Part shown: positions 21,676 through 63,203 of the stretch, in pieces
Numbering within the stretch: the first letter of the stretch is position 1
How the letters are laid out: each line of letters starts with the position of its first letter
Origin: Nothopassalora personata
Taxonomy: Eukaryota > Ascomycota > Dothideomycetes > Mycosphaerellales > Mycosphaerellaceae
Length of the DNA stretch: 64,000 bases
Reading direction: 5' to 3'
Assembly: GCA_033816765.1 (NCBI GenBank)
Contig: CM066293.1
Coordinates: 3,472,001-3,536,000 of the forward strand
Notes under the pieces: generated by a model
Seen by the model: the letters and a program-made list of their open reading frames with translations, nothing else
Databases searched by the model: none
Told to the model about the DNA's origin: nothing
Translations under genes and position numbers: made by a program

Positions 21676-22317
21676 ATGTTCCCTTCTTCCTACTATTATC
21701 CTACCTTTAGACGCGCTATACTATCTACTCGAAAACGAAAGACCCGCGCAAACCGTATCTATCGCCTCGGAGAAGAAGTTATAAAGCCTTATTCTTAGTA
21801 TACGAAGAATAACCTAACGTACCGCGTATATATCTCGTTCGGAAAATACTCCTATTACTATCTTAGTAATGTAGCGCGGTACGACGCGAAGGTAACTAAG
21901 GTAGAATAGAAAAAGCTCGGAGATTAGCGAAAGAGGTTATTAGCCGATCTCGATCGCGCGAAGGAGGCCCTCTCGGAGGCTTCGGCGAAAATAATAGAGG
22001 CGTATACAAAGAAGATGCGTCTCCGGAAGCAATTAAATGCTATTAACCGTAAGGTAGAGGAGGGTCGTACTCTTAAGGAGCGAGAGATTAAGGAGGAGGA
22101 AGCAGCAGATCGGGAGTTAGTAGCGTTAGGCTTACTACTTAAACCTATCTCTAACTCTAGTCTTACTCTAAGTCCTCTAACCTAGAGTACTATAGATAGG
22201 TTTACTAATAATAGGTTCTAGGGTTTCCTCAATAGTATAGTAGCGGAACCTATTAACGGCGCGCCCCCGCTACTTAGTAGCGGTAGAAGTTTCTTAGTAG
22301 TCGGTAGCAATTCTTAA
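21676..22317 (+). pseudogene. Antisense ORF of copy C (Cys-rich coiled-coil protein), RIPed
   Basis: Plus strand, antisense to the element: ATG at 21676, TAA at 22315-22317, 213 codons with five internal TAG. The N-terminal part has Tyr at spacing typical of mutated Cys (Tyr-Arg-Val-Tyr, then Lys-Tyr-Ser-Tyr-Tyr), consistent with TGC-to-TAC RIP. A long charged helix follows (Lys-Lys-Met-Arg-Leu-Arg-Lys-Gln-Leu and Glu/Lys-rich flanks), probably coiled coil. Position, direction and architecture match the antisense ORFs of B (27534) and A (62731). Native function is unknown; a DNA-binding role is inferred only from the A copy. Confidence 0.65.
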
Positions 22318-25553: not shown

Positions 25554-25988
25554 TGTTACGGTTCGGATGAAGGACGGTGCAGGACGTGGCATGGGGAGGA
25601 AGAATCAGAAGACACGAACCAATCGCTAGGAAGAGAAAGGGACCCCACGCCCGGGTCACGTGCACGACCGCGCGCTTAGTGCATGGTCGAACACGACCGC
25701 AGAAGTAGCGTATGGACGTACACGACCACACGACCAGACGACCGGTCGAGTGGACAGACGGACATCTAACACCGGATGGCATACGAACCTCCTTTGTATT
25801 TAGGAACGCTAGAAACCCTTATGGTTCTGATGCGTTCAACTCATGTTACTATCTCACTGATTGGAATACAACTCTTATTCCTATCATTCATCTTCGCTCA
25901 GCTTGCTTCAGCCTCTCCAAAGAATAATACCGCCACGTGACTTGACTTATCTCTCTTTTGAGACTAGCCCTGGAACGAGACAATAACA
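25554..25988 (+). repeat. Solo LTR, un-RIPed, inside element D
   Basis: 435 bp from TGTTACGG to AATAACA, flanked by perfect GCTCT duplications (25549-25553, 25989-25993). The right 250 bp match the LTRs of A and B; the left part is GC-rich and specific. CpA/TpG are intact although the DNA on both sides is RIPed, so it arrived after the RIP of element D. Confidence 0.9.
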
Positions 25989-27533: not shown

Positions 27534-28016
27534 ATGTCTTCTTCCTCCTATAAACGCCGTTATCGACTTGCTCTAGATATTAAAATTTCCGGTATTAAAA
27601 TAGCTCTATGTACGAATTGTTAGAAGTCTCGATCCTCGGGCGCAGTAGTAAAGTGTATCGTAGGTTCTCGGTCTAGGAAGTGTTCGGCCTATATTCGAAA
27701 AGGCTATAAAGATTACGATGTGCGTCTTTCCCGTCCGGAGTAGGAACGTCTTCGCGATTCGCGCGATAAGCTTAAGCTAGAGCTTAAGAGGATTAAAGAG
27801 GAGGAGGTGCGGCTAAAGATACGTAAGATCCGTCTTCGGAAACAGCTTCGATTAGCTAAGCGTCGTACCGACGATGCCGTCGCTAAGGAGTTAGAGGAGC
27901 TCGAGGAGGAAGAGGCGCGCGAGGAGCTAGCGTCTCTTAAGCGGGCGTCGGGGGTAGAGGTGTCGCCTTCGCTAGTCTCCTTCTCGGATATCCTAGAGAT
28001 GCCCGTAAATAACTAG
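27534..28016 (+). pseudogene. Antisense ORF of copy B: Cys-rich, coiled-coil protein (160 codons, two TAG)
   Basis: ATG 27534, stop TAG 28014-28016; internal TAG near 27624 and 27738 are consistent with RIP of Trp or Gln codons. N-terminal half: Cys-Thr-Asn-Cys, then Lys-Cys-Ile-Val-Gly-Ser-Arg-Ser-Arg-Lys-Cys-Ser-Ala-Tyr, with Tyr positions that were probably Cys. C-terminal half: a highly charged helix (Arg-Leu-Arg-Lys-Gln-Leu, poly-Glu) likely to form a coiled coil, then a Ser-rich tail. Length, position and polarity correspond to the intact 167-aa antisense ORF in A. From 27807 it is open to its end. It lies 73 bp from the LTR. The function is unknown. Confidence 0.7.
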
Positions 28017-28112
28017 GCGGCGCTTTCTAGAGCGGAGCCTTAGGGCGAGTCCCTAGGGGTAGAGACTTATTAGGGTACTTATTTGTAAGTTGTGTCCCTG
28101 TTCTTATTAATC

Positions 28113-28187
28113 GGCTAGGTAGCTCAGTTAGTAGAGCGTAAGCTGTCTACACTCTTAAGGTCGTAGGTTCGATTCCTACTCTAGCCG
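28113..28187 (+). other. tRNA-like sequence, probably a pseudogene or tRNA-derived repeat
   Basis: 75 nt. Acceptor arm 7 bp (GGCTAGG with TCTAGCC, last pair G-U), D stem GCTC/GAGC with AGTTAGTA loop, T stem GTAGG/CCTAC with TTCGATT loop. The anticodon arm is abnormal: 4-bp TAAG/CTTA stem, one mismatch and a 9-nt loop, so no anticodon can be assigned. It lies in copy B between the antisense ORF and the pol end and has no counterpart in A. Confidence 0.5.
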
Positions 28188-28217
28188 CTCCCGGCCGACT
28201 AGTCGCTAATCGGTAAC

Positions 28218-33657: not shown

Positions 33658-34793
33658 TGTTATTGTCTCGTTCTAGGGCTAGTCTTAGAGGAGAGATAAG
33701 TTAAGTTACGTAGCGGTATTCTTTAGAGAGGCTAAAGTAAGCTGAGCAAAGATGAATAATAGGAATAAGAGTTGTATTCCAATCAGTAAGATAGTAACAT
33801 AAGTTGAACGCATTAGAACCATAAGGGTTTCTAGCGTTCCTAAATATAAAAGAGATTCGTAGATCTCGGTGATTAGTCTAATCATTCTAAGCATAAGCAG
33901 TCTAATTAGTCTAAGCATAAGCAGTCTAATCGCTCTATGTCTAAGCGCTTAGGCAGTCGTCCTATAGAGAGCGCCTTCACGCGGCGGACGACGTAAGTAT
34001 CTTCGTTACGACGAAGAGAAACTAAGACTCTCTCTCTCGAAAAATACAAGCCTACTCGACTCGAAACAAGAAAAGACAGGTCGGACGAACCGAACGAACG
34101 AGATACGCTCAAAATCTACAAACAAGAACTCCGGAACTGCGAGAAGGGAAAGCGACGTACATAGCGTACACGTCGCTCGAACAACGAAGGCGCTGTCTAC
34201 CTGTCGTCCCGGCAAACCACGTAAACTGCCGGCTGGAACCAAGAGAGGCGTTTAGGGGCGCAAACCACGTATACTGCACGGCTGGAACCAAGAGAGGCCG
34301 AGGGGGGGACGACAGCGAGGCCACTGCGACCGAGGAGCTACACTCGAGACCGGAGAACGCGACTGGATTGAAACAGAGGCAACGGGTGTTTCTTGGGATT
34401 TTGCTCGGTGCGTACGGGTACGGCCGGCTTGGCTTTTTAAAACAAGAACGAGACACGGGCGCAAAACTTGTCTCGCCCGGGGCAAGGCGACAAACCGCAA
34501 TTCTCGACAAGACACGACTACCGGGTACGCGCGTACTACGCCGCAATATATTCGATTTACGGTTCGAATAGCGAGCGTTGCTCGCATCTTTTAAGGAGTT
34601 TTTACGTCCGGGGTACGACGGGGCTTTTCTCCTTCTCTCAAATTTTGGTCTCGTTCTCGAGACCCGTGTTGCATAGTCTTTGACTCAAATAGCACGTTAA
34701 TGGAATAATCAATCAATAAGCGCTTAGGCAGGATGAGTTACGTGTTCGTCTTGTCGTTATAATTCTAGGGTCCCTAGGAATCATTCCGTAACA
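33658..34793 (-). repeat. 5' LTR of copy B, interrupted
   Basis: Same LTR as 27100-27460 but split after a TAAGCGCTTAGGCAG sequence by a 760-bp insertion. Next to it, inside the element, lies TTAAACGCC, the RIPed form of the A primer-binding site. Confidence 0.9.
33957..34716 (+). mobile_element. Un-RIPed 760-bp insertion with 15-bp target duplication (LINE/SINE-like)
   Basis: Flanked by TAAGCGCTTAGGCAG at 33942-33956 and 34717-34731. The intact LTR at 27100-27460 shows the empty site with only RIP-type differences. The insert is GC-rich, keeps CpA/TpG, and ends in an A-rich simple repeat (AATAATCAATCAA), which suggests target-primed reverse transcription of a non-LTR element or its non-autonomous derivative. 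It has an internal duplication of about 38 bp (34204-34240, 34260-34297). Open frames on the minus strand up to 145 codons exist but look incidental. No LTRs or inverted ends. Confidence 0.65.
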
Positions 34794-56325: not shown

Positions 56326-56703
56326 TGTTACGGATCAATATGACGAGGACACTGCCCAGCCAATGGACGCCCTACAGCTCACAGGAAGCAAGGACCAATA
56401 AGATATGGCGCGACGCTGCAAGAGCGCGACGGCTGTCGAGCCTGCGCAATGTCGAGCCAGCGCGACACAGCGCGCCTGCCAAGAGCTTCGAGCCAGAAGC
56501 ATTCTCCTATGTATTTAGGAACGCTGAGAAACCCTTATGGCTTCGAGGCGTTCAACTCATGTTACTATCTCACTGATTGGAATACACCTCTTACTCCAAT
56601 TATTGCACTTCGCTCTCAGCTCGCCTCAGCCTCTCCAAAGAATACCGCCACGTGACTTGACTTCTCTCCCCCCTTGAGATTAGCCCTGGAACGAGACATA
56701 ACA
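56326..56703 (+). repeat. 5' LTR of element A
   Basis: 378 bp, TGTTACGG to ACATAACA. The inferred U3/R border is at about 56545 (see TATA and PBS entries). Confidence 0.95.
56508..56518 (+). promoter_or_regulatory. TATA-like element of the A LTR promoter
   Basis: TATGTATTTAG lies about 30-38 nt before GGCGTTCAA (56547), the inferred mRNA 5' end. The core TATTTAGGAACGCT is kept in the other LTRs of this group. Confidence 0.45.
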
Positions 56704-56720: not shown

Positions 56721-58817
56721 ATGAGTGCTACTCAGGCAGCTGGTAGGGGAACACCCGCCCCCAGCGAAGCAGGAAGCATCCGCCGTGCGCCACCGCAACA
56801 AACCACCATGAAGGACGATGAGTCTGATGACGACGACGAACCCGTTCCTAGGAAGAAGGACGTTAAGGCTGCCAAGCCGGACCTCTTCTATGGAGACAGG
56901 GCCAAGTTCGATGATTGGGTCAATCAAATGGATATGTACCTCATGTTCAACCCAGTCGACTCCGACAAGAGAACTATTTTCGCCATCACGTTCCTTCGTG
57001 GAAGCGCGCAGAACTGGATCAAGCCGTACCTCAAGGAATACCTTGACGGTATGGGACAACGAGACCCCACCGGAATGTTCAGGAACTACACCCTCTTTAA
57101 GGACAAGATGAAGTCTATCTTTGGGACTTCCAACGAGGTTCAACAGGCCATACGAATAATCCAACACCTGAAGCAGAAGACGTCTACTTCGGAGTACGCG
57201 GCCAAGTTTGAAGAATACGGACAGATTACCGGATGGGACCAGACGGCGTTGATGACAATGTTCAGACGTGGACTCAAGGACTCCGTCAAGGACGAGCTCA
57301 TGAGACACGGAGGACAGGTCGACACCCTCGAGCGACTGATGCGAGCATCGATTGAGATCGACGATCAGTTGTGGGAACGTTACCAGGAAAAGAAATACGA
57401 CTCCAAAGTGGGAGGCATGGCAGGATACGTTCCGGATCGCAAGCCTTCTACGGGCTACGTTGCGAAGGGGAACTTTCCGCGACACAACCAGCCCTACTAC
57501 GGACCACAACCAATGGAGCTGGACGTTACCCAACGAGGAGAAAGGATCGACAGAGGCAAGGGCCGAGGAAAGCCCTTCAAGGGAAAAGGAAAACCGACAT
57601 GCTACGCGTGTGGCAAGGAAGGCCACATGGCGCGGGATTGCCGCGGTAAAAATATGGTGCGCCGCGAGCAGTTCAACATGATGCAACCACGAACTAGTAA
57701 ACCTGGGAGCAGCGTTGGGACTCTGGGAGACACCGACTATACTCAGGGAGTGGAAGGAAGAGTTAACGAAGGACCTTCCTTGGACCCCTCGATGGGACGA
57801 GGAGGATACCATGGTCAAGAGGACCAGCCACAACAGTTCACAGAAACATGCGAACTCGAACAACTTCTCCAGGAAAGGAACGACCTCGATAATGCATTCG
57901 ACCAGATTGACACCTGGATGTATCTTCACGAGGACCGGATAGATCTCACAGCTATACAACAACACGACGACCTCCATAAGCGATGGTGGGAAATAACCAG
58001 CGAGATCGAACGACAGGAGAAACGAGAATTCGGCATGATAGCGCGGGGAAACGAGGCTGCTACGGGCCCTCGAAATGGTCACGGAACCCTTCATTGGAGC
58101 TTCTGTTACCAAGACTCGTGCTCGATCCACTACTCCGCGAAGGAAGGAGCAGGGTATTGGCCACAACAGCCAAGGGGAACCCTGGGAGCTCAGCACAGGC
58201 AAGATGCCAGGCTCCGAGAAGTGGACATTGATGAGTCTTGCTTCGATGATGAAGACAAAGAAAACCAGGAACCAACATGGGATGGACGATGGTCCCCCGT
58301 ACAACAAGAAGAAACCCTGGATACCATCGAAGAAGATCATACCCCGGAAGAGTCGAGCGAGGACTCATCCGAAGGAGAAGAGAGCGAAACTGACGACGAC
58401 AATGAAGTCTTGACGTTCACGATAGACGCACCCAAGAAGTTCTACGACATTATTGTCTATCTGACGCGCAAGCACGAAGAATTCCTACCCAAGGTCTCGG
58501 GCAAGAGATACTTGCATCCAGTCGAATTTGACAAGACACTCGACACTATGCGAGCAATGACCGAGCGACCACCAATAGGAAGCAAGATGATAGGTACCGG
58601 GTACCTTACACCGTTAGGGATATTTGTATCCAACGAATTACGCCAAGCAGTACAGCACGTACGTGCTCTCTACTCAGAATCGCAGAAGATCCAGGAACGC
58701 AACAAACTACAGGTGTGGACACAGAGCAACGGGCTACAGGTTCTAGCCGAAGCATCTAGGCACGAAGCACAGCGAACCACATACCATTCGGGAAAAGGAT
58801 CAGCTCCCCAGGAATGA
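56721..58817 (+). CDS. gag: Gag polyprotein of element A
   Basis: 698 aa from the first ATG after the PBS (an upstream in-frame TTG at 56706 is not credible). Residues about 1-50 are acidic and disordered. About 55-230 form the Ty3-type capsid domain (Phe-Leu-Arg-Gly-Ser-Ala-Gln-Asn-Trp is the conserved helix). A basic Gly/Lys/Arg stretch precedes the CCHC zinc knuckle at residues 294-307 (C-x2-C-x4-H-x4-C, intact). Unusually, about 390 residues follow the knuckle, with an acidic run (Glu/Asp/Ser) around 540-570 and a conserved-looking terminal domain, which is much longer than in Ty3 or Tf1. Gag assembles the cytoplasmic particle and packages RNA. Its TGA overlaps the pol ATG (ATGA), so pol needs recoding or reinitiation. 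Confidence 0.93.
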   Translation: MSATQAAGRGTPAPSEAGSIRRAPPQQTTMKDDESDDDDEPVPRKKDVKAAKPDLFYGDRAKFDDWVNQMDMYLMFNPVDSDKRTIFAITFLRGSAQNWIKPYLKEYLDGMGQRDPTGMFRNYTLFKDKMKSIFGTSNEVQQAIRIIQHLKQKTSTSEYAAKFEEYGQITGWDQTALMTMFRRGLKDSVKDELMRHGGQVDTLERLMRASIEIDDQLWERYQEKKYDSKVGGMAGYVPDRKPSTGYVAKGNFPRHNQPYYGPQPMELDVTQRGERIDRGKGRGKPFKGKGKPTCYACGKEGHMARDCRGKNMVRREQFNMMQPRTSKPGSSVGTLGDTDYTQGVEGRVNEGPSLDPSMGRGGYHGQEDQPQQFTETCELEQLLQERNDLDNAFDQIDTWMYLHEDRIDLTAIQQHDDLHKRWWEITSEIERQEKREFGMIARGNEAATGPRNGHGTLHWSFCYQDSCSIHYSAKEGAGYWPQQPRGTLGAQHRQDARLREVDIDESCFDDEDKENQEPTWDGRWSPVQQEETLDTIEEDHTPEESSEDSSEGEESETDDDNEVLTFTIDAPKKFYDIIVYLTRKHEEFLPKVSGKRYLHPVEFDKTLDTMRAMTERPPIGSKMIGTGYLTPLGIFVSNELRQAVQHVRALYSESQKIQERNKLQVWTQSNGLQVLAEASRHEAQRTTYHSGKGSAPQE
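58790..58796 (+). promoter_or_regulatory. Candidate -1 frameshift heptamer GGGAAAA
   Basis: In the gag frame it reads G-GGA-AAA, the X-XXY-YYZ form. It lies 18 nt before the gag stop and inside the window (58760-58817) where the pol (-1) frame is open. Confidence 0.45.
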
Positions 58818-61800
58818 GCGGCCAAAGGGAGTTATGCAACACAGAAGCTCGAGCATCGACATCACTAACAGTTTTCCAAACCAAAGCAATCGTCAACGGA
58901 CACAGAACTAGTGTCATGATCGACTCCGGAGCAGCGGGGAATTTTGTCTCCAAGTCTTTCGCAAGAAGAAACGGGTTAGCTACCCTGAAGAAGAAATGGG
59001 GTTACGAGTTGATCGCGGTAGACGGATCATCGTTACCTAACGTGGAATGGGAGACGACACCATTGCCACTGGCTATCCAACAGCACCACGAGAATATTAC
59101 CTTGGATGTCACTGATATGGCCAGTCATGACATAGTATTAGGTATGCCTTGGTTGAGACAGCACAACCCAGCAATCGACTGGAGGAGAGGAGTACTCACA
59201 TTTAGGGAATGCAATTGCGTTATTGGCATTCAGCCTACGCATCGACAGCGGACGATGGTAGATGAGGCAAGGAAACAGCTCAACGCATTCGAGCTTGCGC
59301 CGAACAGAAGGACAGAAGAACCACCTTCGACCGGGACAGATACTGGCGTGGGGCCGCCGGATCACGAAGTCACTGGAACGGATGGACGTAACGCACCATC
59401 GAAGGATACTGGCATATCGGAACCAGCTATCCCCAAGGAGTACCTCAAGTGGAAGAGGCTCTTTGAAGAGGAAAAGGGCAAAGACGCCTTACCTAAACAT
59501 CAACCATGGGACCACAAGATAAACATTCAGCCAGGGAAAGAGCCTCCATGGGGACCCCTATATCAAATGTCCGAGAAAGAGCTAGAAACCCTACGAGAAT
59601 GGCTGAAGGAGAAACTCGCCAAAGGATGGATACGACGGTCCACCTCAAGCGCGGGAACTCCATGTATGTTTGTTCCAAAGCAGAACGGGAAACTACGACT
59701 CGTCCAAGACTACCGAAAGTTGAACGAGATCACCATCAAGAACCGATACCCACTACCGAATATCGAAGAAGCACAGGACAGACTTACTGGATCAGACTGG
59801 TACACGAAGATCGATCTACGAGACGCCTTCTACGCTATACGCATGGCAGAAGGAGAGGAATGGAAAACCGCATTTAGAACAGGATACGGACTCTACGAAT
59901 TCTTGGTTATGCCTATGGGGTTAACCAACGCACCTGCATCCTGTCAAGATCTAGTCAATGAGACACTGAGAGACCTTCTCGACGTGTGCGTTATTGCCTA
60001 CATGGACGACATCCTCGTCTATACTAGAGGATCGCTACAGGAACACATTACACGGGTCCAGGACGTCTTCGAGCGCCTTACCCGCGCAGGATTCAAGACG
60101 GCACCAGAGAAATGCGAATTCCACAAGAAACGAGTCAAATTCCTTGGATTTATTATAAGCACAACAGGAATCCAGATCGACCCAGCAAAGACACAGTCTA
60201 TCCAAGAATGGCCGACACCAGCTAATGTCAAGGACGTACAATCCTTCCTAGGACTCGCGAACTACAACAGGAAGTTCATCAAGGATTACTCTAAGACAGC
60301 TGCGGCTATGACAGCGCTCACACGAAAGGATACCAAATGGAAATGGGGCAGCAAAGAACAACAAGCGTTCCAACTACTGAAGGAACAATGCACCCGAGCA
60401 CCTACACTACGATTATTCGACGGCACAAAAGAAGTCCAGATTGAGACTGACGCATCGGACATGGCTATAGGAGCATGCCTCACGCAGGAGCATGATGGGA
60501 AACGACACCCAGTGGCCTATTACTCAAGGAAAATGACACCCGCGGAACGAAACTACGACATCCATGATAAAGAACTTCTCGCTATTGTCGCTGCAATGCA
60601 GCACTGGAGGGTATACGCGGAAGGAGCACCTAAGCTGACGATTCTTTCTGATCACAAGAATCTCACTTACTTCACTACGACGAAAGTGCTGACACGAAGA
60701 CAGTCCCGCTGGTCGGAACTGCTTGGTCAGTACAAGTTCGAAATCCGCTATACACCCGGAAAGGACAACGGCAGGGCCGACGCACTGAGCCGAAGAAGCG
60801 ACTACATGGAAGGAAAAGAACCAGTGCAGCAACAAATATTGAAGACTAACCACGACGGAAGTCTTAGCGCCAACACAAAGGAGTTTAACAGCATAGTGCG
60901 CGTTCTTCAGGACACAGAAGAACAGTTCCCACTAGCACAAGGAAAATACCAAGTACCGAAGGAACGAGAACAAGAATGCATACAGCAACATCACGACAAC
61001 CCCGTATACGGACATCCTGGAACCACGAAGACTCTCGAGATCATACGACGCAGCTTCTCTTTCCCACAGATGAGACAAAAGGTGCTTCAGTACATCAAAG
61101 AATGCACACACTGCCAACGAAACAAGGCTGCAAGACACGAGAAGTACGGAGAAATACAGTTCAGGACACCACCGACACAACCATGGGAAGAAGTTACGAT
61201 GGACTTCATTACAAAGCTCCCTATCTCTACGGACAAAGCAAACGGGACAAGGTGCGACATGATACTTGTTATGGTCGATCGACTAACCAAATATGCACAC
61301 TTCATACCTGCTAGCGAGACATACACAGCAGAACAACTCGGATACCTCGTTCTCGATAGACTAGTACGGTACCACGGATTCCCCAAAGTCTTCATTACAG
61401 ACAGAGACAAGCTATTTACATCAAACTACTGGAAGACCCTTGTAGCAGAAATTGGTATACGACACAAGCTGTCCACGGCGTACCATCCACAGACGGACGG
61501 TCAGACGGAAAGAACAAATCAGACATTGGAACAGTACCTGCGACACTACGTCAACTACGCACAAGACAACTGGGTATCACTCCTACCTATGGCACAACTT
61601 GCACTAAACAATCACGAATCAGAAACTACAAAAGAGACACCGTTCTTCGCCAACTACGGCAAGCATCCAAACCTGTTCGGAGAACGGCAAGGCCACCCGC
61701 AAGCGGAAAGAGCAATTACGGCTACAGAGAGCCTACGAAAAATACACGACAAGCTCAATTCCAGAATTCAACAACAACAGACAATACTTACGAAAACACG

Positions 61801-62221
61801 AGCGAAACGACAAATGGCACCTCAGCTTAAGAAGGGGGATAAGGTCTACCTCCTTACCGCAAAATTGAGAACAAGAAGGAAGACCAAAAAACTGGACCAT
61901 GTGAAAGTCGGACCATTTCTCGTTGAGGAAGTACGAGGACCAACCAACTACCGACTGCAATTGCCAAAGGACGCAAAAATCCACCCAGTATTCCACATTT
62001 CCAAGCTAGAACCAGCAGACCCCAAAACACCATGCCAACAGACATTCCATTTCCAGACGGAAGAAGAAGACGAATTCGAAGTCGAAAAGATCCTGCAAAA
62101 GCGAGGTCAGCACTACCTCGTCAAATGGAAAGGATACGACGACTCAGAAAATACCTGGGAACCAGAAAAGAACCTTCAGAACTGTCAGCAAAGGATCAAA
62201 CAATTTCGGGAACGAGAGTGA
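58814..62221 (+). CDS. pol: Pol polyprotein of element A (protease, RT, RNase H, integrase, chromodomain)
   Basis: 1135 aa if counted from the ATG overlapping the gag stop; pol is in the -1 frame. Aspartic protease: Asp-Ser-Gly at 37-39 and Ile-Val-Leu-Gly-Met-Pro-Trp near 106-112. RT: Tyr-Met-Asp-Asp at 396-399. RNase H: catalytic Asp546 in Glu-Thr-Asp-Ala-Ser and a following Asp-His-Lys-Asn-Leu. Integrase: His-His-Cys-Cys zinc domain around 720-765, then a catalytic triad Asp797, Asp863, Glu899 (Asp-x35-Glu) with the usual Thr-Asp-Gly-Gln-Thr-Glu-Arg context. A C-terminal chromodomain at about 1086-1135 (Tyr-Leu-Val-Lys-Trp-Lys-Gly-Tyr) is expected to direct insertion to modified histone tails, fitting its landing in a repeat block. 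All catalytic residues are intact. The stop TGA is 6 nt from the convergent antisense ORF stop. Confidence 0.95.
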   Translation: MSGQRELCNTEARASTSLTVFQTKAIVNGHRTSVMIDSGAAGNFVSKSFARRNGLATLKKKWGYELIAVDGSSLPNVEWETTPLPLAIQQHHENITLDVTDMASHDIVLGMPWLRQHNPAIDWRRGVLTFRECNCVIGIQPTHRQRTMVDEARKQLNAFELAPNRRTEEPPSTGTDTGVGPPDHEVTGTDGRNAPSKDTGISEPAIPKEYLKWKRLFEEEKGKDALPKHQPWDHKINIQPGKEPPWGPLYQMSEKELETLREWLKEKLAKGWIRRSTSSAGTPCMFVPKQNGKLRLVQDYRKLNEITIKNRYPLPNIEEAQDRLTGSDWYTKIDLRDAFYAIRMAEGEEWKTAFRTGYGLYEFLVMPMGLTNAPASCQDLVNETLRDLLDVCVIAYMDDILVYTRGSLQEHITRVQDVFERLTRAGFKTAPEKCEFHKKRVKFLGFIISTTGIQIDPAKTQSIQEWPTPANVKDVQSFLGLANYNRKFIKDYSKTAAAMTALTRKDTKWKWGSKEQQAFQLLKEQCTRAPTLRLFDGTKEVQIETDASDMAIGACLTQEHDGKRHPVAYYSRKMTPAERNYDIHDKELLAIVAAMQHWRVYAEGAPKLTILSDHKNLTYFTTTKVLTRRQSRWSELLGQYKFEIRYTPGKDNGRADALSRRSDYMEGKEPVQQQILKTNHDGSLSANTKEFNSIVRVLQDTEEQFPLAQGKYQVPKEREQECIQQHHDNPVYGHPGTTKTLEIIRRSFSFPQMRQKVLQYIKECTHCQRNKAARHEKYGEIQFRTPPTQPWEEVTMDFITKLPISTDKANGTRCDMILVMVDRLTKYAHFIPASETYTAEQLGYLVLDRLVRYHGFPKVFITDRDKLFTSNYWKTLVAEIGIRHKLSTAYHPQTDGQTERTNQTLEQYLRHYVNYAQDNWVSLLPMAQLALNNHESETTKETPFFANYGKHPNLFGERQGHPQAERAITATESLRKIHDKLNSRIQQQQTILTKTRAKRQMAPQLKKGDKVYLLTAKLRTRRKTKKLDHVKVGPFLVEEVRGPTNYRLQLPKDAKIHPVFHISKLEPADPKTPCQQTFHFQTEEEDEFEVEKILQKRGQHYLVKWKGYDDSENTWEPEKNLQNCQQRIKQFRERE

Positions 62222-62227
62222 CCTACG

Positions 62228-62731
62228 CTATAATCGAACTTCAGAACTCCCGGAGAAGACAAATGGAGACGCCACACCAATAGCCTCCAAGTCTTGGGCG
62301 AATGATTCTAGATCCGGAGGAGGATCGATATTCGAGGAGGATACCTCCCGGGAGACGCACGCAATCTTCGCGTTCAGCAGTTTGTTGTTCGCATCCCGGA
62401 CCTTCGAGTTGCGATCTATCCGCGCCTGGAGCTCCGACATGCGAGAAAACAACCGAAGAGCTTCTCGCGTTGTCTCGTCCATCTCTTTCTTATCGGCCTC
62501 GATCCTAGCCGCGAGAGCGTCGTCCACCCGGTCTAGCTTCTCCCAGGAAGAAGTGACGCACTCCTTGCCGCGACGAGCACACTCTGCGCAAGGCATAAGG
62601 GAAAAATCCGCGATGTATACGCAGCAACGGCTACGAGAAGAGCAGAAATCGCAAGGGACTGGAGCGTCGAGGGGATTGGCGAGTATTCGTCGATGGCGAG
62701 AATGACGGTCGGAGGACTTGCGAGAAGACAT
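62228..62731 (-). CDS. Antisense accessory ORF of element A: Zn(II)2Cys6-like cluster plus coiled coil
   Basis: Minus strand, 167 aa, ATG 62731-62729 (A at -3), TAG at 62230-62228. Residues 1-20 are basic. Cys27, 30, 37, 48, 51 and 58 give C-x2-C-x6-C-x10-C-x2-C-x6-C, the exact spacing rule of the fungal binuclear zinc cluster (Gal4 type), with Arg residues between the Cys; Cys36 is extra. Residues about 65-120 are a charged heptad-like helix, probably coiled coil, as often follows such clusters and drives dimerisation. The last 45 residues are acidic and Ser/Pro-containing, which could act as an activation segment. It is convergent to pol with a 6-nt gap. Not seen: the usual basic residues after the second Cys are Ser/Arg rather than Lys/Arg-rich. 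A DNA-binding regulator of the element or host is inferred from motif and fold only. Equivalent ORFs lie in copies B and C. Confidence 0.7.
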   Translation of the reverse strand: MSSRKSSDRHSRHRRILANPLDAPVPCDFCSSRSRCCVYIADFSLMPCAECARRGKECVTSSWEKLDRVDDALAARIEADKKEMDETTREALRLFSRMSELQARIDRNSKVRDANNKLLNAKIACVSREVSSSNIDPPPDLESFAQDLEAIGVASPFVFSGSSEVRL

Positions 62732-62765
62732 CGTTACAGTATCCACGAGGGCGGGGACAACCCTG

Positions 62766-62773
62766 ATTATATC
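62766..62773 (-). promoter_or_regulatory. TATA-like element upstream of the antisense ORF
   Basis: GATATAAT on the minus strand about 40 nt before the antisense ATG, between the ORF and the 3' LTR. Confidence 0.35.
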
Positions 62774-62790
62774 ATCTTACTAACACGTGA

Positions 62791-62804
62791 CCGTGAGGAC
62801 ACGG
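62791..62804 (+). promoter_or_regulatory. PPT-proximal hairpin of element A
   Basis: Stem CCGTG / CACGG, loop AGGA, ending 2 nt before the polypurine tract. On the other strand it lies in the presumed 5' leader of the antisense ORF. Confidence 0.55.
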
Positions 62805-62806
62805 CC

Positions 62807-62825
62807 AAAGGAAGGAGGGAGATGG
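62807..62825 (+). promoter_or_regulatory. Polypurine tract of element A
   Basis: AAAGGAAGGAGGGAGATGG directly before the 3' LTR; nearly all purine, the plus-strand DNA primer site. Confidence 0.85.
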
Positions 62826-63203
62826 TGTTACGGATCAATATGACGAGGACACTGCCCAGCCAATGGACGCCCTACAGCTCACAGGAAGCAAGGACCAATA
62901 AGATATGGCGCGACGCTGCAAGAGCGCGACGGCTGTCGAGCCTGCGCAATGTCGAGCCAGCGCGACACAGCGCGCCTGCCAAGAGCTTCGAGCCAGAAGC
63001 ATTCTCCTATGTATTTAGGAACGCTGAGAAACCCTTATGGCTTCGAGGCGTTCAACTCATGTTACTATCTCACTGATTGGAATACACCTCTTACTCCAAT
63101 TATTGCACTTCGCTCTCAGCTCGCCTCAGCCTCTCCAAAGAATACCGCCACGTGACTTGACTTCTCTCCCCCCTTGAGATTAGCCCTGGAACGAGACATA
63201 ACA
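62826..63203 (+). repeat. 3' LTR of element A
   Basis: 378 bp, read as identical to 56326-56703; followed by TACGA. Confidence 0.95.

What the first reader, a model, noticed from the sequence alone, without database searches (positions are those of the whole stretch)
62228..62731. A retrotransposon carries an antisense gene with a Gal4-type zinc cluster
In the intact element A the strand opposite gag-pol encodes a 167-aa protein whose six Cys follow C-x2-C-x6-C-x10-C-x2-C-x6-C, the Zn(II)2Cys6 rule, followed by a probable coiled coil and an acidic tail. Such clusters are known from fungal transcription factors; I know of no LTR element described with one in antisense (compare retroviral antisense genes such as HBZ of HTLV-1, which is also a transcription regulator). 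It could control LTR transcription or host silencing.
Basis: partly seen in the sequence, partly recalled or inferred. Interest (0 to 1): 0.92.

Follow-up and report, generated by a model that had tools for sequence, protein, structure and literature searches.

The report
Retrotransposons swap regulator-plus-promoter modules
A fungal jumping gene carries, on its opposite strand, a gene for a Gal4-like zinc-cluster protein, and near-identical elements in the same genome carry many different versions of this gene, each with its own promoter stretch, usually full of short repeats, which suggests that the elements exchange ready-made self-control modules.

Summary
Window 62231-62731(-) encodes a 167-aa Zn(II)2Cys6-like protein in the gap between pol and the 3' LTR of an intact chromodomain Ty3 element; nine genome copies, this one included, encode the same protein. 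It belongs to a large family: about 19 types keep all six cysteines, and the two closest type pairs show Ka/Ks 0.05-0.08.

The context is the real find. Small gag-only elements (gag 98-100% identical in 121 scored copies) carry at least 13 different antisense zinc-cluster genes. Autonomous elements do the same: gag-pol 95.6-97.2% identical, zinc regions 34-41%. The exchanged block runs from near the antisense stop to just before the TATA region: gene and U3 promoter vary together, R-U5 does not. In 14 of 20 distinct U3s repeats exceed every shuffle.

Best explanation: a DNA-binding regulator of its own U3, probably an activator, moved as a module. Binding, direction and transcription are untested. 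Antisense genes in LTR elements (brtn, Retand) and self-targeting TE proteins (VANC) are known; I found no report of this modular zinc-cluster system in the open library searched.

The parts
56326..56703 (+). 5' LTR of element A (378 bp)
   Evidence: 100% identical direct repeat with 62826-63203
56721..58817 (+). gag (capsid, CCHC knuckle)
   Evidence: Pfam Retrotrans_gag, zf-CCHC
58760..62221 (+). pol open frame (stop to stop), -1 relative to gag: protease, RT, RNase H, integrase, chromodomain
   Evidence: Pfam hits; frames
62228..62731 (-). antisense Zn(II)2Cys6-like gene (type I cassette), 167 aa plus stop
62558..62653 (-). Cys6 cluster, residues 27-58 of the antisense protein
   Evidence: translation; Cys columns
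62732..62825 (.). spacer and polypurine tract; presumed 5' leader of the antisense gene
   Evidence: sequence; role inferred
62826..63005 (+). U3 of the 3' LTR: the part that varies with the cassette between types; holds repeats such as GCGCGAC and TCGAGCC
   Evidence: repeated 7-mers z=2.9; 1 of 200 shuffles reached the observed value
63006..63203 (+). core promoter-R-U5 part of the 3' LTR, conserved between element types
   Evidence: 86.7-88.2% identical to the matching part of autonomous types VIII (L063, L078), T199, T239 and T216
27534..28070 (+). RIP-damaged antisense cassette (type T199) of element B, whose gag-pol is on the minus strand
   Evidence: 83% aa to the T199 protein; orientation of B
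21703..22305 (+). RIP-damaged antisense cassette related to type X, beside a pol remnant on the minus strand
   Evidence: 50% aa to type X; 22330-22522 matches the end of pol
25593..25790 (+). U3 part of a solo LTR of the T239 family, with ACGACC repeats
   Evidence: 99% to the T239 U3 taken from L074

Best explanation
The antisense gene encodes a small Zn2Cys6-like protein: basic N-terminus plus zinc cluster, long coiled coil, acidic tail with aromatic residues. It binds short repeats in the U3 of its own element and controls transcription from the LTR, most likely as an activator. In the 3' LTR the U3 region would drive the antisense gene leftward, in the 5' LTR the genomic RNA rightward. 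Gene and U3 form one self-specific module that is moved between near-identical chassis by recombination, probably template switching during reverse transcription; gag-only elements use it too. Shown here: the gene family, its coding constraint, the module borders, the covariation of gene type with U3 type, and repeat arrays in most U3s. Inferred: DNA binding, its target, activation, the antisense promoter and the recombination route.
Against: No transcript, binding or reporter data. The link between protein similarity and U3 k-mers is modest (r 0.35, p 0.0005; cross-chassis r 0.26, p 0.014; Spearman p 0.10), and without T219, T207 and two near-duplicates the cross-chassis signal is gone (p 0.33). 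Nearest mini cassette and nearest mini U3 agree for 2 of 5 autonomous types (T199, T239) and disagree for I, VIII and T216. The U3s of XIV (shared by the II recombinant L014), XII and III show little or no repeat excess. Three minis share one premature stop and still multiplied; two others have deleted or truncated cassettes, so the protein is not strictly needed in cis. The T199 model found no Zn2Cys6 structure. The repeats do not look like classical CGG sites. All genome evidence comes from one genome.
Confidence: 0.55

Rival explanations
1. Repressor or immunity module: the protein binds the U3 array and limits its own element's copy number; a new module on an old chassis escapes existing repression, like heteroimmune phages.
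For: Explains many module types coexisting on near-identical chassis and exchange of regulator with target as a unit.
Against: Arrays lie upstream of TATA, where activator sites usually sit, and tails are acidic with aromatic residues, typical of activators (both recalled); type III follows 26 and type IX 15 of the 121 gag copies listed, so copy number is not held low.
Confidence: 0.2
2. Anti-silencing factor like VANC of plant VANDAL elements: the protein binds arrays in its own element and removes or blocks heterochromatin marks.
For: VANC proteins bind short tandem motifs that differ between related elements (PMC5735166, abstract and passages), a close formal match.
Against: Sequence relation to VANC was not tested; chromatin state in this fungus is unknown; RIP, the defence visible here, is mutational and would not be undone by such a factor.
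Confidence: 0.15
3. Linkage only: gene and U3 are neighbours and travel together because of how reverse transcription switches templates; U3 repeats are host factor sites or slippage products and the protein acts elsewhere.
For: Borders near R and after the coding region fit strand-transfer mechanics (inference); 14 of 20 U3s hold a CCAAT or CACGTG site; the k-mer association is modest and its cross-chassis part rests on two pairs.
Against: R-U5 reassorts while U3 stays with the cassette, with one clear recombinant (L014); shared repeats on unrelated chassis.
Confidence: 0.25
4. Chance or non-coding ORF: only the antisense RNA matters.
For: Antisense transcripts of retroelements can act as RNA (recalled).
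Against: Ka/Ks 0.05-0.08 in the two closest pairs; in 15 of 15 reverse-strand frames (five pairs) at least one of the two sequences has a stop; reverse frames 0 and 2 of the two closest pairs show more nonsynonymous than synonymous change, while reverse frame 1 mirrors the coding pattern. Six Cys kept across types.
Confidence: 0.03

Closest known systems
brtn of Boty-like Ty3 elements, Botrytis cinerea (Zhao et al. 2011; seen only as title and as cited in passages of PMC8365987, PMC7264820, PMC4227169, PMC5987419)
   Same: Antisense gene in a fungal Ty3 element with chromodomain (PMC4227169), listed among antisense ORFs between pol and 3' LTR (PMC7264820)
   Different: No zinc cluster, U3 covariation or module exchange seen in the passages I could read; sequence relation untested
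Retand antisense ORFs with TRP28 domain, plants (PMC11963269; abstract and Discussion read)
   Same: Antisense ORF between pol and 3' LTR, predicted DNA binding, family-specific tandem repeats, some non-autonomous members, regulatory role proposed
   Different: Non-chromovirus plant elements; other domain; repeats lie in the internal region; no exchange on a constant chassis described in what I read
VANC/VANDAL, Arabidopsis (PMC5735166; abstract and passages read)
   Same: TE-encoded DNA-binding protein, related proteins with different targets, targets form tandem repeats
   Different: DNA transposon, demonstrated anti-silencing; no zinc cluster stated in what I read
Tnt1 of Solanaceae (PMC1838419; abstract read)
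   Same: Modular evolution: U3 diversifies on a conserved element
   Different: The abstract names no encoded regulator travelling with U3
HTLV-1 HBZ and Tax with U3 repeats (recalled; antisense genes of HTLV are also mentioned in PMC11963269, Discussion)
   Same: Antisense regulator gene near the 3' LTR; repeats in U3 serve a viral regulator
   Different: bZIP antisense factor; no family of exchangeable modules
Fungal Zn(II)2Cys6 regulators such as Gal4, Put3, Hap1, Leu3 (recalled)
   Same: Cys6 cluster then coiled coil; acidic activation region
   Different: Not TE-encoded; much larger; canonical CGG half-sites

Membership tests
Zn(II)2Cys6 binuclear cluster proteins | Cys spacing C-x2-C-x6-C-x5-12-C-x2-C-x6-8-C (rule recalled) | tested here: met
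   Type I and ten others of 20 representatives fit; XI, XIb, XII, XIII, XIV, T199, T207, T219, T239 have a longer first loop (x11 to x13) and do not fit strictly
Zn(II)2Cys6 binuclear cluster proteins | Pfam Zn_clus curated cut-off | tested here: inconclusive
   P0001 11.4 bits against 21, below cut-off; type V 21.0, at cut-off; 8 of 22 members match at E<=1
Zn(II)2Cys6 binuclear cluster proteins | Fold: two CxxC-helix units | tested here: inconclusive
Zn(II)2Cys6 binuclear cluster proteins | Binds two Zn and DNA | not testable with these tools
   needs protein
Ty3 chromovirus | gag, PR-RT-RH-IN order, chromodomain, LTRs | tested here: met
brtn (Boty) antisense genes | Antisense position between pol and 3' LTR | tested here: met
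   compared with PMC7264820
brtn (Boty) antisense genes | Sequence homology to BRTN | not tested
   no BRTN sequence at hand; paper not held
Retand TRP28 antisense ORFs | TRP28 domain | not tested
   no TRP28 profile identified in the libraries used
VANC-like self-targeting TE regulators (analogy, not homology) | Element's own non-coding DNA holds type-specific repeated motifs | tested here: met
   for most types: 14 of 20 distinct U3s exceed all 200 shuffles; not for XIV and XII, weak for III, T239, I, X
VANC-like self-targeting TE regulators (analogy, not homology) | Protein and motif diverge together | tested here: inconclusive
   r 0.35 p 0.0005, cross-chassis p 0.014, Spearman p 0.10; cross-chassis signal lost on dropping T219 and T207
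VANC-like self-targeting TE regulators (analogy, not homology) | Protein binds motif and removes silencing | not testable with these tools
   needs experiment

The most novel reading that the evidence does not exclude
LTR retrotransposons of this fungus have a module economy: a regulator gene and its cognate promoter array are exchanged as one unit between elements on both autonomous and gag-only chassis, giving otherwise near-identical elements private control, comparable to immunity regions exchanged among related phages. Such specificity groups would let many lineages coexist in one genome and let non-autonomous elements choose when to be transcribed.
Probability: 0.4. Interest if true: 0.95.

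Novelty: new variant of a known kind. Interest (0 to 1): 0.85.

Why it matters
What antisense genes of LTR retrotransposons do is an open question (PMC7264820, PMC11963269). Here one genome holds about 19 natural versions of such a gene, each next to its own promoter, on two near-constant backbones: a ready-made swap experiment. If the proteins recognise their own U3, this would be a self-specific control system of LTR elements traded as a module, and a set of compact natural DNA-binding proteins whose targets can be guessed from the neighbouring DNA.

Tried and rejected
Rejected: that the ORF overlaps gag-pol in element A (it does not). Rejected: that the pattern is private to element A. Considered and dropped: an element-encoded amber suppressor tRNA serving gag-pol readthrough; gag ends in TGA in A and T199 and pol lies in another frame. 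Not obtained: other genomes with the same chassis; two scans of viral contigs and one of genome contigs confirmed no relative. Host species not identified; three RPB2-family loci were found, but the last protein search went to the mini gag. The T199 structure model gave no Zn2Cys6 match. PDB profile search of A1 gave mostly coiled coils; LAC9 and LEU3 only at E 1.5 and 1.7. NCBIfam: no hit for P0001 or the mini gag. Notes of mine give 53 mini blocks and 17 of 23 U3s; the outputs give 56 blocks, 55 with a zinc ORF, and 16 of 23, which I use.

Full report
The observation. Window 62228-62731 on the minus strand reads as a 167-aa protein with the stated cysteine spacing. It sits between the pol stop at 62221 and the 3' LTR at 62826. 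The element around it looks intact: 378-bp LTRs with 100% identity, gag with capsid and knuckle, and pol with protease, RT, RNase H, integrase and chromodomain. The window lies in a 54.5-Mb genome of 40 contigs, taken to be fungal from its elements and relatives; 25 of 32 bins of the window are depleted of CA/TG dinucleotides (ratio 0.54 or less), read here as RIP.

The gene is real. Nine full-length copies at 100% protein identity occur in the genome, the window's own included, and three outside proteins match over 98-100% of the query at 93, 42 and 41% identity. Aligned with P0002-P0004 and 18 more types from the genome, five cysteines are invariant columns and the sixth is kept but shifted by a gap (six Cys in 20 of 20 representatives). 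Ka/Ks is 0.05 (XI/XIb) and 0.08 (XIII/T207). On the reverse strand of five pairs, at least one sequence has a stop in 15 of 15 frames (both have in 13); in the two closest pairs reverse frames 0 and 2 show more nonsynonymous than synonymous change, while reverse frame 1 shows the coding-like pattern, as expected where third positions coincide (inference). More distant pairs have near-saturated synonymous sites. Cassettes diverged long before they met their present chassis, so this constraint is that of the gene's history, not necessarily of the mini elements.

A constant chassis with a variable antisense gene. The genome search with P0001 scored 150 of 195 candidates. Many hits lie in small elements: LTR, a 330-aa gag, an antisense zinc ORF, LTR; in the loci read through there is no pol between the LTRs and the period is 2.05-2.10 kb. 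A search with this gag scored 121 of 1049 candidates, all 98-100% identical; 70 of the 121 have a P0001-like cassette downstream in antisense and 51 have none on the list. I fetched the region after gag for 28 of these 51: 23 hold full-length zinc-cluster ORFs, most of types not matched by P0001 and three of type IX that the capped list had missed; five hold broken ones (three prematurely stopped, one deleted, one truncated); none of the 28 holds anything else. The other 23 were not examined. Gag identity among six minis carrying five cassette types is 95.6-99.9% at nucleotide level, while their cassettes are 23-44% identical to P0001.

The same on the autonomous chassis. Types T199, VIII and T216 have gag-pol 95.6-97.2% identical over the stretches compared: 3,000 nt of gag and early pol for T199/VIII, and 1.21-1.26 kb of late pol for the three pairs. 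Type I of the window is a more distant chassis (about 76-88% nt in the same stretches). R-U5 is 97.1-100% identical in six of six pairs of T199, VIII, T216 and T239, yet zinc regions of T199, VIII and T216 are 34-41% identical. Identity ends 0 to 174 nt before the antisense stop, depending on the pair, returns in five of six pairs only for short pieces inside the block (up to 112 nt, mostly around the polypurine tract and LTR start; none in T199/T216 and T199/T239), and returns 2-9 nt before the R-U5 block. T239 could be compared only over the end of pol because pol is rearranged in L074.

Gene and U3 travel together. In 55 mini blocks with a zinc ORF (56 examined; three are second units of tandem arrays) I found 14 cassette clusters, one of which is the prematurely stopped form of IX, and 15 spacer-plus-U3 clusters. 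They agree except that cassette II occurs with two U3s (L014 shares its U3 with type XIV, a recombinant) and XI with two diverged forms. R-U5 behaves differently: two haplotypes 10% apart both occur with II, III, IX, X and XI, five of the six types with four or more typed copies; XII has only one. The border lies a few bases before the TATATA motif in minis. Copies within a type are recent relatives, so these are few independent events.

Repeats in U3. Repeated 7-mers exceed all 200 dinucleotide shuffles in 16 of 23 U3s; I and X are reached by 1 shuffle, T239 by 4, III by 8, XII by 21, and the XIV/IIr sequence by 53/52 of 200. None of 15 control segments from R-U5, gag, pol and the cassettes exceeded all shuffles. 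The 23 include three duplicates (IIr is XIV; T206 is IX; T186 is near T207); of 20 distinct U3s 14 exceed all. Repeats include CGAGCAGA (VI), TGMTCTC (VIII, IX, XI), TGMTCAG (T199, T207, XIII, T216) and CGACC (T219, T239, II).

Do protein and motif go together? With 20 types, zinc-region identity and U3 k-mer similarity correlate: r 0.28-0.38, p 0.0006-0.0054 over six k-mer settings; for cross-chassis pairs r 0.20-0.28, p 0.015-0.060. The rank correlation is weak (p 0.10), and without two near-duplicates, T219 and T207 the cross-chassis signal disappears (p 0.33). T199/T207 and T239/T219 are the clear cases; for I, VIII and T216 the nearest cassette and nearest U3 among minis differ. I count this as suggestive.

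Mechanism. The simplest reading is a self-specific regulator of the LTR: sites upstream of TATA, a DNA-binding domain, a dimerisation helix and an acidic tail. I favour activation, since the sites sit where upstream activating sequences sit and the tail resembles acidic activators (both from general knowledge). Broken cassettes that still multiplied (three minis with the same premature stop at separate loci) fit a product supplied in trans. Module transfer by template switching would explain the borders but is inferred. Because strand transfer at R may also link U3 to the neighbouring gene, linkage alone is a serious rival.

Known relatives. Antisense genes between pol and the 3' LTR are described in plants and in Boty, function unknown (PMC7264820, section 5 read; PMC8365987, PMC4227169, PMC5987419, passages). 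Retand elements carry antisense ORFs with a predicted DNA-binding domain and family-specific tandem repeats, and a regulatory role was proposed (PMC11963269, abstract and Discussion). VANC proteins of VANDAL elements bind tandem motifs that differ between related elements (PMC5735166, abstract and passages). Tnt1 shows modular U3 evolution (PMC1838419, abstract). I found no report of exchangeable zinc-cluster modules in the listings of searches of an open-licence library; subscription papers are mostly missing.

Spread. A profile search found 50 proteins at E<=0.001 among the 7,996 candidates scored, named ones from Xanthoria, Cladosporium and Camillea; mini gag relatives number 27 at E<=1e-10, one named, from Hortaea. 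Whether chassis and cassette are joined there could not be seen.

Noticed in passing
L072 1346-1420, L074 1436-1510, L063 1251-1328; window 28113-28188: A tRNA gene (Rfam tRNA 52.5 bits in L072, 50.6 in L063) lies beside the antisense gene on the same strand in three autonomous types and in RIP-damaged element B; ARAGORN reads anticodon CTA (amber) in all four. L078 has a similar stretch that ARAGORN does not call.
   Followed up: partly
G000, type VIII copies; L083: Nine near-identical type VIII cassette copies (98-99%) list one in-frame TAG each, and gag of the VIII copy in L083 has two TAG codons. Either light RIP of a copy that then multiplied or tolerated amber codons; positions in the nine copies were not compared.
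   Followed up: no
G000 C12:1355701-1366457, C11:1764056-1766461, C5:3760664-3763051: Mini elements occur in head-to-tail arrays, six cassettes and six gags in a row at 2056-base spacing on C12.
   Followed up: partly
window 33957-34716: About 760 bases inserted in the 5' LTR of element B, flanked by a repeated TAAGCGCTTAGGCAG-like word, as from a target duplication.
   Followed up: no
L014 and L027 (cassettes II and III): Types II and III share a nearly identical coding region for the C-terminal tail while the zinc and coil parts differ; VI has a similar tail. Parts of the gene also seem to recombine.
   Followed up: no
P0015 and P0060: A cassette protein and a mini-gag protein from the same source list the same longest contig length, 2164 bases, close to one mini-element unit; they may be neighbours in another fungus.
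   Followed up: no
L023, L025: The two LTRs of each of these minis differ in their R-U5 part (92.8-93.4 against 97.6-98.8% to the L014 LTR), a sign of recombination between copies.
   Followed up: no
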